Assembly (NCBI RefSeq): GCF_014133895.1
Contig: NC_050728.1
Location: 124,001 to 188,000 of the forward strand
Direction of reading: 5' to 3'
DNA from: Torulaspora globosa
Taxonomy: Eukaryota; Ascomycota; Saccharomycetes; Saccharomycetales; Saccharomycetaceae
DNA length: 64,000 nt
In this document: one piece after another, positions 1 through 45,000 of the stretch
Layout of the letters: the number at the start of each line of letters is the position of its first letter
Position numbering within the stretch: position 1 is the stretch's first letter
Notes under the pieces: model-generated
The model's input: only the letters and a program-made list of their open reading frames with translations
Database searches by the model: none
What the model was told of the DNA's origin: nothing
Translations under genes and position numbers: made by a program

Positions 1-1149
1 TCAAAGTCTCTGTCCCTGAGGTACACCAATTTCTGGTTTCGCTTCGTTTCACAAGAGCATCTGTTCAGGATCGATCTGAGTGTTTCATGATTTGTCCCAC
101 TATACAAGTGGAGAATCCATATATCACGCTCGTTTAATCCATTACGCTCATTAGACTTAGCGCCACGGAAATTGGTGGAGACAGTCAAACCAAGAGAACG
201 ACATGAAGTCTATACCGTCTCGCAATAGCCATCAGAATCTATTAAGCCTGCGAGAAAAGCTTCACGCACCACTATTTGCTCTGTTCGCATGAATAGAGGA
301 ACGCTCTTGGGCCATTTTTTTTTTCCATTTCCCAGGAATCTTAGTCCTTCGAGAAACTTAACTAGCGGGTTGTTTTTGTTCAAATTACGTACCGCGCCAT
401 TATAGGTGTGAAGGTATCCTGTTGCCTTAAAGCCCTCCCGAAGCTCGATTCTGAGACTCATACCCCAAACTTTTGCATTCTCCCGAAGTCTGGTGTTGAC
501 ATCGTCATCTTCAGAGTGCAAAGCGAAGGCTGCTCCTTTTCTGTAACCATCACCAATCCAGAACCTTAACAACCATGCCATGGCTTCAAGCTGCCCTGCA
601 GTAATTTTCCTTTCGAAACATTGTTCCAAGCATGGCCCAAGACAGGTATCTCTATCGATATAGGTTGCAAAATCATACTAGAAGTAGCCGGACAAGTCGT
701 CTGCCTCACATTGCCAATTAAAGCATCTTCCGTCGCTCCGCAGTACCATTGGCTACGGAATCGTCTCGATTTTTCCTTGATGATCTTGATAATTCGACCA
801 TCCGTTGTTTGATGATCAGCCAGCTGAGACACGGAAACCTCCACGCCCTTTCTTGGCTATCTGGATCCTCTGTTTCGTCCTCAAAGTCAGTTGTTGTCTC
901 TTGGAACATGTCATTTCGATTATGCCCCACCGAGGGATCTTGCAAGGGATCTTGCAAGTGTGCGTGGTTGGTCTTTTGTCGAATTGTGACCAAATCATGG
1001 TCACCTCTTAACACAGCCTCGACTTTTGCCGCACCTCCATGAGATGTCAGAACTTCATCGCCAACTTTGATGTTTCAATTGGCACAGCCAACCTTTGTAC
1101 CTGGTACCAAACCACCAATGAACGGTGGTTCACCGCTGATGCTCTGCAT
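1..1149 (-). pseudogene. HO: HO-family LAGLIDADG homing endonuclease, decayed and partial
   Basis: This is a relic of the HO / VMA1-intein (VDE) / WHO family of homing endonucleases, which cut DNA at a long target; HO starts mating-type switching. Reading leftwards from an ATG at 1149, a Hint-like start (PGTKV, then IKVGDEVL and IRQKTNH) is broken by a TGA. A shifted frame gives MTCSKRQQLTLRT, like the family's TCNATHELVVRT box but with His lost. Another frame gives TTDGRIIKIIKEK. A fourth gives ADDLSGYF, a TAG, then a long block (629-210) with AWLLRFWIGDG, LRENAKVWG, RNLNKNNP and VREAFLAGLIDSDGY. After a further TAG, CRSLGLTV and GTNHETLRSILNRC follow to the window edge. The motifs LRENAK and RNLxKNNP favour HO over VDE from remembered sequences. 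At least three frameshifts, several stops and missing residues make it non-functional. The C-terminal zinc-finger part would lie outside the window. Confidence 0.85.
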
Positions 1150-1660
1150 TGAGACGAAATCAGTCGCTCTTTTACACACCACAGGGATGGTGCAATGTAG
1201 TGGTACGTTGATTCAATTGGGGCTACGAAGACGGATGGTGCCAAAGAGACGAGTGATTGATGAAGAGGTTAGTTTATCGGTAAGATGAGAGGAAGGATGG
1301 GTGTAGCCAAGACACCCATAACTTTTACCCGAACATCCTCAAGCTTTGCACGTTTCAACCACTTATCGGGCCTCGCGCTGCCGACGACGTACTGAGGCAG
1401 CAGGTGCTGGCCGCCAGCTTCCGCCACAGTTCAGCGGCGTCGCCACAGTTGTGAAAAATTTGGTATACGATCGTAAAGCTGACTTCTCTGGCTAGTGGCA
1501 GCTGCAGCGCAAGCGGTGGTAAAAGAGCACATGGAACACAACCACGTTGGCCAATGCATCGGCCGCGAGAAGCAGTATATATAGCGAAGAGAACGCTAGT
1601 GTAGTGCGTGTGTAACGGCCAGATTAGAAGCAGCAGTGAACCAACTGAGCTACACAGGCA
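1150..1660 (+). promoter_or_regulatory. SAM promoter region with paired Met31/32-like sites and TATA box
   Basis: This 511-base gap holds no credible gene. GCCACAG occurs at 1423-1429 and 1442-1448, and both are followed by TT, so the other strand reads AACTGTGGC twice, 19 bases apart. That matches the AAACTGTGGC site known for Met31/Met32 in S. cerevisiae sulfur-metabolism genes. A TATATATA box lies at 1576-1583, about 78 bases before the SAM ATG. No CACGTG (Cbf1) site was seen. That these sites function is inferred from the known regulation of SAM genes. Confidence 0.55.
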
Positions 1661-2809
1661 ATGGCAGGCACTTTCCTTTTCACTTCAGAGTCCGTGGGTG
1701 AGGGCCACCCAGACAAGATCTGCGACCAGGTGTCGGATGCGATCCTGGACGCGTGTCTCGCGGAGGACCCGCTGTCCAAGGTTGCGTGCGAGACGGCAGC
1801 CAAGACCGGTATGATCATGGTGTTCGGCGAGATCACGACGCGCGCAAAGCTCGACTACCAGAAGATCGTCAGAGAGACGATCAAGAAGATCGGGTACGAC
1901 TCGTCGGACAAGGGGTTCGACTACAAGACGTGCAACGTGCTGGTGGCCGTGGAGCAGCAGTCGCCGGACATCGCGCAGGGCCTGCACTACGAAAAGGCGA
2001 TCGAGGAGCTCGGCGCCGGTGACCAGGGTATCATGTTCGGGTATGCGACCGACGAGACGCCGGAGCACCTGCCATTGACCATCCTGTTGGCACACAAGCT
2101 GAACATGGCGATGGCGGACGCGCGCAGAGACGGGTCGCTGCCATGGTTGAGACCGGACACAAAGACGCAGGTGACCGTGGAGTACGAGGATGACCACGGA
2201 AGGTGGATCCCGCGGAGAATCGACACGGTGGTTGTGTCCGCGCAACACGCGGAGGAGATCTCGACCGCGGACTTGAGACAGGCGATCAGGACCGAGATCA
2301 TCGAGAAGGTGATCCCCGCGGAGTTGCTCGACGAGAACACCAAGTACTACATCCAGCCTTCGGGCAGATTCGTGATCGGCGGTCCGCAGGGTGACGCCGG
2401 TCTGACCGGCAGGAAGATCATCGTCGACGCGTACGGCGGTGCGTCTGCTGTCGGCGGCGGTGCGTTCTCCGGTAAGGACTACTCCAAGGTGGACCGTTCC
2501 GCGGCTTACGCGGCCAGATGGGTCGCCAAGTCGCTGGTGGAGGCCGGGCTCGTCAAGAGGGTGCAGGTGCAGTTCTCGTACGCGATCGGTATCGCGGAGC
2601 CCTTGTCGCTCCATGTGGACACGTACGGTACCGCGACCAAGTCGGACGAGGAGATCATCGAGATCATCAAGAAGAACTTCGACTTGAGACCGGGTGTGCT
2701 GGTCAGGGAACTGGACTTGGCCAGACCTATCTACCTGCCAACCGCGTCGTACGGCCACTTCACCAACCAGGACTACCCATGGGAAAAGCCAAAGAAGTTG
2801 GTTCTATGA
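1661..2809 (+). CDS. SAM1: S-adenosylmethionine synthetase
   Basis: The protein makes S-adenosylmethionine from methionine and ATP in the cytosol, feeding methylation and sulfur metabolism. It is 382 residues long, the same as S. cerevisiae Sam1. Family signatures are plain: [16 protein letters not shown] near residue 14, [15 protein letters not shown] near 118, and the glycine-rich GGGAFSGKD loop near 265. Codon use is strongly biased, with C or G ending most codons, as expected for a highly expressed gene and unlike its neighbours. The gene lies next to VTA1 and SWI6, as SAM1 (YLR180W) does in S. cerevisiae, while LCD1 and RPL37 nearby echo the SAM2 locus. It is therefore best seen as the single unduplicated ancestor of SAM1 and SAM2; the symbol is nominal. 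Confidence 0.97.
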
Positions 2810-44883: not shown

Positions 44884-44908
44884 ACGCGTCCTCCAGCGCC
44901 TGACGCGT
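44884..44908. promoter_or_regulatory. Two MCB (ACGCGT) elements upstream of TOF1
   Basis: ACGCGT occurs at 44884-44889 and 44903-44908, 19 bases apart. The second is inside the 10-base perfect palindrome TGACGCGTCA. They lie 93-117 bases before the TOF1 ATG. Tight pairing and the S-phase function of Tof1 fit control by MBF; this is inferred. Confidence 0.65.
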
Positions 44909-45000
44909 CAGTGCAGATCATAGAAAACCACATAGTTAGCTGGCTCAAACATCTTAACGAGTGATAGACTCATAAGAAGCACTCTGTATCGGGTGGGACA

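What the first reader, a model, noticed from the sequence alone, without database searches (positions are those of the whole stretch)
1..1149. HO-family endonuclease relic beside SAM
HO normally lies elsewhere in yeasts, and its WHO relatives are known at FBA1. A dead family member upstream of a SAM gene may be a decayed HO, or the relic of a homing element that used a different site. The first LAGLIDADG motif reads FWIGDG, with its Asp like VDE (HO has WLGDS as remembered), while LRENAK and RNLxKNNP are HO-like, so it may sit near the base of HO.
Basis: partly seen in the sequence, partly recalled or inferred. Interest (0 to 1): 0.75.

Follow-up and report, generated by a model that had tools for sequence, protein, structure and literature searches.

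The report
Dead WHO10 homing element beside SAM
This is the decayed remains of a yeast selfish DNA-cutting element (a cousin of the mating-type switching enzyme HO) that appears to have landed in and destroyed a lipid phosphatase gene next to the SAM gene in Torulaspora globosa.

Summary
The relic is real and far above chance. It is not a decayed HO. A 50-row protein tree places its one open block inside the WHO10 clade of Torulaspora globosa, beside two other WHO relics of the same genome; HO and VDE form separate clades and have intact genes elsewhere here. Just left of the window the relic abuts a 144-bp 3' end of FBA1, the cargo of published WHO10 insertions. Beyond that lies a short coding piece matching the start of LPP1, the gene expected between PSP1 and SAM by yeast gene order (recalled). 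No LPP1 was found elsewhere in the genome, so the element probably destroyed it. The same LPP1-FBA1 junction recurs 163 kb away, and the intact element on contig 3 carries the TFS1 3' end from this locus. Several deletions in the relic are shared, in combinations that fit no single tree, with relics at other loci, so pieces of dead copies moved or were converted between sites. The element kind is published (Coughlan 2020); this site is not in that paper's main text. New member of a known kind, of moderate interest.

The parts
1..1216 (-). WHO10-type endonuclease relic (Hint + LAGLIDADG; C-terminal zinc-finger part deleted); continues to C2:123995, 6 bases left of the window, then joins a 144-bp FBA1 3'-end fragment at C2:123851-123994 (outside the window)
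210..677 (-). longest open block of the relic, 155 codons, used in the tree
546..563 (-). first LAGLIDADG motif, FWIGDG
   Evidence: the intact relative's motif is aligned to PI-SceI
225..254 (-). second LAGLIDADG motif, LAGLIDSDGY
1033..1125 (-). start of the Hint domain (PFIGGLVPGTKV ... NIKVGDEVLTSHGG)
   Evidence: DNA aligned with the intact copy L014
1222..1306 (.). piece of subtelomeric repeat inside the element's upstream region; all 13 other listed matches lie within 5 kb of contig ends
1310..1342 (-). remnant of the WHO10 upstream region; a further 22 bp (1346-1367, 91%, E 0.085) may also belong to it
   Evidence: 94% to L010 over 33 bp; for 1346-1367
1661..2809 (+). intact S-adenosylmethionine synthetase gene, the right-hand neighbour; its DNA matched only itself in the genome

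Best explanation
The relic is a dead copy of the WHO10 mobile element of Torulaspora globosa. Its ancestor was a Hint-LAGLIDADG-zinc-finger endonuclease gene travelling with a 3' end of FBA1. It entered the interval between TFS1 and SAM and destroyed the LPP1 gene there, leaving about the first 30 LPP1 codons (supported by a short sequence match and by place; that the element caused the loss is inferred). I think integration was repair of a chromosome break by joining of non-homologous ends, which would also explain the captured scraps of other DNA (inferred, not shown). Later the copy lost its zinc-finger part, came to hold a subtelomeric scrap and many indels, and exchanged patches with other WHO10 copies (patches shown, mechanism inferred). 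A derivative carrying the LPP1-FBA1 junction reached C2:287k (shared junction shown, direction inferred).
For: Tree of 50 rows: relic with relic L016 (99/90), then relic L010 (99/99), inside the T. globosa WHO10 clade (8 rows 97/81; 10 rows 100/100); WHO, HO and VDE each form one clade. The genome is T. globosa HG536 by the contig lengths of its three intact WHO proteins. A 144-bp FBA1 3' end abuts the relic and recurs at 8 other non-FBA1 loci. The LPP1 piece (C2:123717-123806) scores 50 against LPP1-type proteins; 0 of 300 shuffles and 0 of 2263 control ATG-peptides reach that. The only match of an LPP1 protein listed in the genome at E <= 1 is a paralogue on C5. PSP1, TFS1 and SAM flank the place. 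L009 and L024 share the LPP1-FBA1 junction. Shared indels.
Against: The LPP1 match is short (30 aa): plain tblastn gave it E 0.055, no better than noise in the same 9 kb; the profile search gave E 1.8, though first in its list; and the genome search with an LPP1 protein did not list it. No 3' remnant of LPP1 was found. Yeast gene order at this locus is recalled, not tested. No second Torulaspora genome could be read, so an empty or intact allele was not seen. Three of the 11 WHO loci away from FBA1 (C2:80k, C2:1264k, C6:248k) gave no FBA1 fragment. Integration by end-joining is not shown.
Confidence: 0.82

Rival explanations
1. It is a decayed HO gene, either a duplicate or a former HO locus, or a lineage branching at the base of HO.
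For: Shares Hint and LAGLIDADG domains with HO; both lie in the same superfamily.
Against: The 14 HO rows form one clade (100/100) apart from WHO plus the relic. The relic carries an FBA1 3' end. An intact HO gene exists at C4:102k, next to an ORF that I read by eye as HSP70.
Confidence: 0.02
2. It is a stray copy of the VMA1 intein (VDE).
For: VDE and WHO share the fold; PI-SceI heads the solved-structure list for an intact relative.
Against: The 5 VDE rows form their own clade (98/93) apart from the relic; this genome's VMA1 holds an open VDE.
Confidence: 0.01
3. It is a WHO10 relic, but the element simply fell into the TFS1-SAM intergenic space; the 'LPP1' piece is a captured scrap or a chance match, and LPP1 was lost independently.
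For: WHO10 insertions carry scraps of other genes (PMC7282813). The match is only 30 aa and weak by tblastn.
Against: The piece is on the strand and in the place where LPP1 is expected (order recalled) and begins with a start codon; no LPP1 was found elsewhere.
Confidence: 0.15
4. SAM is the homing target, as FBA1 is for other WHO genes.
For: The relic's homology ends about 445 bp upstream of the SAM start codon.
Against: SAM DNA matches only itself in the genome, and among the loci compared no match to the SAM stretch was better than E 0.085. At FBA1, WHO genes lie downstream of the host gene (PMC7282813), whereas this one is upstream of SAM.
Confidence: 0.02

Closest known systems
WHO10 family of Torulaspora globosa (Coughlan et al. 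2020, PMC7282813; read: the sections on WHO phylogeny, WHO10 transposition, Discussion, and isolates; elsewhere abstract and passages only)
   Same: Same clade in the tree, unlinked to FBA1, FBA1 3' end next to the gene, scraps of other DNA, host gene apparently destroyed without duplication as reported at CMC4, RKM5 and MIN6
   Different: Dead and truncated; LPP1, TFS1, SAM1 and SAM2 are not named in the paper's main text; subtelomeric scrap; lesions shared with relics at other loci
WHO families at FBA1
   Same: Intein-like Hint plus LAGLIDADG endonuclease, no exteins
   Different: Not beside FBA1; zinc-finger part lost
HO endonuclease
   Same: Superfamily and domain order
   Different: Separate clade; not mobile (known); intact copy present elsewhere in this genome
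VDE / PI-SceI intein of VMA1
   Same: Hint and LAGLIDADG domains
   Different: The relic is not inside a host reading frame; separate clade; open copy in VMA1 of this genome

Membership tests
WHO (WHO10) | Sequence groups with WHO10 proteins rather than HO or VDE | tested here: met
   the 10-row clade (100/100) with the five intact T. globosa WHO proteins holds the relic; that this clade is the published WHO10 is inferred from species, strain counts and FBA1 cargo
WHO (WHO10) | Hint plus LAGLIDADG endonuclease domains | tested here: met
   Hom_end over cut-off at the relic; Hint start and both LAGLIDADG motifs readable
WHO (WHO10) | C-terminal CxxC zinc finger | tested here: inconclusive
   That part is deleted in the relic; CxxC motifs are visible in the intact relative P0001
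WHO (WHO10) | FBA1 3' fragment immediately downstream of the gene | tested here: met
   144-bp fragment at C2:123851-123994, directly next to the truncated gene
WHO (WHO10) | Located away from FBA1 | tested here: met
   FBA1 is on C7; the relic is on C2
WHO (WHO10) | Endonuclease activity and mobility | not testable with these tools
   The copy is dead; mobility is inferred from a shared junction and dispersed copies
HO | Groups with HO proteins | tested here: not met
HO | HO locus position | tested here: not met
   HO is at C4:102k, beside an ORF read by eye as HSP70 (HO-SSB1 adjacency in S. cerevisiae is recalled)
VDE intein | Embedded in VMA1 between exteins | tested here: not met
   VDE is in VMA1 at C3:1.00 Mb; the relic lies between TFS1 and SAM

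The most novel reading that the evidence does not exclude
WHO10 in T. globosa behaves as a two-tier mobile family: intact endonucleases move, or drive conversion of, already dead and deleted copies together with captured ends of host genes, mainly within one chromosome, so that damaged patches spread between loci. The SAM/LPP1 site was a way-station whose gene ends can be traced in two other insertions (LPP1 start at C2:287k, TFS1 end in the intact contig-3 element).
Probability: 0.35. Interest if true: 0.6.

Novelty: new member of a known kind. Interest (0 to 1): 0.4.

Why it matters
The 2020 paper says it is not clear how WHO10 elements enter sites without homology. A set of old insertions with traceable gene-end scraps, shared dead patches and a probable loss of a conserved gene gives a fossil record against which integration models can be tested, and suggests a homing-endonuclease family as a cause of gene loss in yeast. 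It also removes one candidate for an early HO.

Tried and rejected
Decayed HO and stray VDE: rejected by the tree and by open copies of both elsewhere. SAM as homing target: rejected, no second SAM match in the genome and no SAM match better than E 0.085 in the loci compared. Fixed element ends: the alignments against L009 stop at the same bases, which first looked like fixed termini, but all-against-all comparison shows ends that differ between elements; the shared stop is where L009's own flank begins. LPP1 by plain tblastn: not significant; support comes from shuffles, control peptides and place. A 3' remnant of LPP1 between the element and SAM: none found. A donor gene for the LPP1-like piece elsewhere in the genome: the only other place found was C2:287k. 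The lack of T. globosa names among the LPP1 database hits was not used as evidence, because clustering at 90% can hide names. Mosaic tests are mixed (p uncorrected): of 9 triplets with L009 as child, 6 gave p < 0.05 in both directions, 2 in one direction only (L016/L017 0.067 and 0.031; L022/L010 0.066 and 0.048) and 1 in neither (L016/L014 0.39 and 0.38); of 8 triplets with other children, 3 gave p < 0.05 in both directions, 3 in one, 2 in neither.

Full report
What was checked. The window lies at C2:124001-188000 of a 9.28-Mb, 8-contig genome. Three intact proteins of the family found below are listed as Torulaspora globosa HG536, on contigs whose lengths equal C1, C2 and C3, so the genome is that assembly. 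HG536 being strain CBS764 is inferred from the 3 + 2 split of intact WHO proteins between HG536 and HG537, the same split that the paper gives for WHO10 in CBS764 and CBS2947.

The relic. On the minus strand, window 1-1149 reads as a Hint-LAGLIDADG endonuclease over three frames with stops in each. DNA homology to other copies runs from C2:123995 to C2:125216. Against the intact copy L014, 1065 of 1221 aligned bases agree, with 11 deletions, 1 insertion and loss of the last 559 bp, which carry the zinc-finger part. Both LAGLIDADG motifs are still readable.

Which family. The tree has 50 rows: 26 proteins that I labelled WHO, 14 HO, 5 VDE (labels given beforehand from hit lists and names; a chosen part of the 36 hits listed and the 120 listed, plus this genome's own HO and VDE) and 5 blocks of own relics. 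The three groups each form one clade (WHO 100/99, HO 100/100, VDE 98/93). The relic's block groups with relic L016 (99/90), then relic L010 (99/99), inside an 8-row clade with the five intact T. globosa WHO proteins (97/81) and a 10-row clade (100/100). Only 42% of the kept columns are filled for the relic. This yeast also has an open HO at C4:102k and an open VDE in VMA1 at C3:1.00 Mb. That the clade is the published WHO10 is inferred from species, strain counts, location away from FBA1 and the FBA1 cargo (PMC7282813).

The element around it. Left of the window, the truncated gene abuts a 144-bp FBA1 3' end (C2:123851-123994), 88% identical to the 3' end of FBA1 itself on C7 and 88-94% to fragments at 8 other non-FBA1 loci. 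Three of the 11 WHO loci away from FBA1 (C2:80k, C2:1264k, C6:248k) gave no FBA1 match in that call. Right of the gene lies a piece of subtelomeric repeat at window 1222-1306; all 13 other listed matches are within 5 kb of contig ends. Then come 33 bp of the WHO upstream region, window 1310-1342, perhaps continuing to 1367 (E 0.085), then the SAM promoter.

The host gene. The order at the locus is multicopper oxidase, PSP1, TFS1 (minus strand), relic, SAM, then VTA1-like and SWI6-like genes. In S. cerevisiae LPP1 lies between PSP1 and SAM2 (recalled). Between TFS1 and the FBA1 fragment, C2:123717-123806 on the plus strand encodes a 30-residue peptide from a start codon. Its best alignment to 40 LPP1-type proteins scores 50, against 31.9 +- 3.9 for shuffles (0 of 300 as high). 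Against N-terminal parts of 38 of these 40, 0 of 2263 control ATG-peptides from the window and 14 other loci score as high (highest 47). Against this: tblastn gave E 0.055, within noise, the profile search gave E 1.8, first in its list, and the genome search with an LPP1 protein did not list the piece. A related copy of the piece at C2:287k (L024) extends into a stretch that also resembles LPP1 (5 of 300 shuffles as high). No LPP1 gene was found elsewhere: a PAP2-family search gave 7 places (5 over the cut-off), of which I looked at 6 and none read as LPP1, by eye (L035 was not looked at), and an LPP1 protein found only a paralogue on C5 at 41% over its core. I conclude that LPP1 stood here and was destroyed, probably by this insertion.

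Traces of movement. L009 (this locus) and L024 share the junction between the LPP1 piece and the FBA1 3' end, and substitutions in the FBA1 part not seen in the other 8 sequences aligned. Because LPP1's expected home is here, the composite most simply moved from here to C2:287k. Separately, the intact element on C3 (L015) carries 87 bp, 97% identical, of the TFS1 3' end from this locus, next to 83 bp, 95% identical, of window 44894-44976. Its geometry does not fit a simple carry-over from the relic's position, so it may be an independent capture.

Shared lesions. Among 12 aligned copies, several deletions recur with identical breakpoints at different loci: 27 bp in L009, L021, L022; 37 bp in L009, L010; 23 bp in L009, L010, L017; 1 bp in L009, L010, L016; 791 bp in L020, L021. 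The sets do not fit one tree: for the 27-bp and 23-bp deletions, and for the 23-bp and 1-bp deletions, all four combinations occur (L009, L021, L010, L014; L009, L017, L016, L014). A 1-bp loss in a G run could recur by chance; the larger ones, with linked substitutions, hardly. By 75-bp blocks the relic is among the closest to L021 and L022 at its start, to L010 in the middle (up to 100%) and to L016 in several later blocks. Of 9 permutation triplets with L009 as child, 6 gave p < 0.05 in both directions, 2 in one and 1 in neither; of 8 with other children, 3, 3 and 2. These p values are uncorrected. So patches of dead copies passed between loci, by conversion or by movement of dead copies; I cannot tell which.

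Distribution. WHO coding DNA lies at 11 places away from FBA1, HO and VMA1, and an FBA1 fragment with WHO scraps at a twelfth. Eight of 12 are on C2, 14% of the genome; binomial p 4.7e-5 if sites were independent, which shared ancestry makes too strong.

What is known. WHO elements, WHO10's spread in T. globosa, its FBA1 cargo and disruption of host genes are published (PMC7282813; four sections read in full, passages elsewhere). That paper's main text has no LPP1, SAM1, SAM2 or TFS1 and left 'badly degraded pseudogenes (relics)' out of its tree; its supplements could not be read here. Searches for WHO10 with Torulaspora, and for T. globosa with homing endonuclease, listed that paper and one on the PRP8 intein, seen only as a listing.

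Verdict. A new, dead member of a known mobile family at a site not named in that paper's main text, with a probable gene loss and an unusual record of shared damage.

Noticed in passing
window 44894-44976: An 83-bp stretch just upstream of a Timeless-family gene and downstream of a subtilase gene recurs at 95% identity in the intact WHO10 element on C3; no WHO match near it was listed.
   Followed up: partly
L020 and L021 (C1:941k and C2:650k): Two WHO10 copies on different contigs share the same 791-bp internal deletion and several 1-bp deletions; one half of L020 is 96-98% identical to the intact C3 element.
   Followed up: partly
L010, L013, L014, L015, L017, L020: Between the WHO gene and the FBA1 fragment these elements hold a short inverted duplicate of the WHO gene's own interior.
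   Followed up: no
L018 (C7:156-165k): Besides a WHO10 relic, the FBA1 locus holds a relic of another WHO lineage, grouping with P0016 of T. globosa HG537 (100/98).
   Followed up: partly
L015 5500-6120 and L024 5522-6514: Coding remnants that look like a Ty3-type retrotransposon lie next to two of the WHO10 insertions (judged by eye from translations).
   Followed up: no
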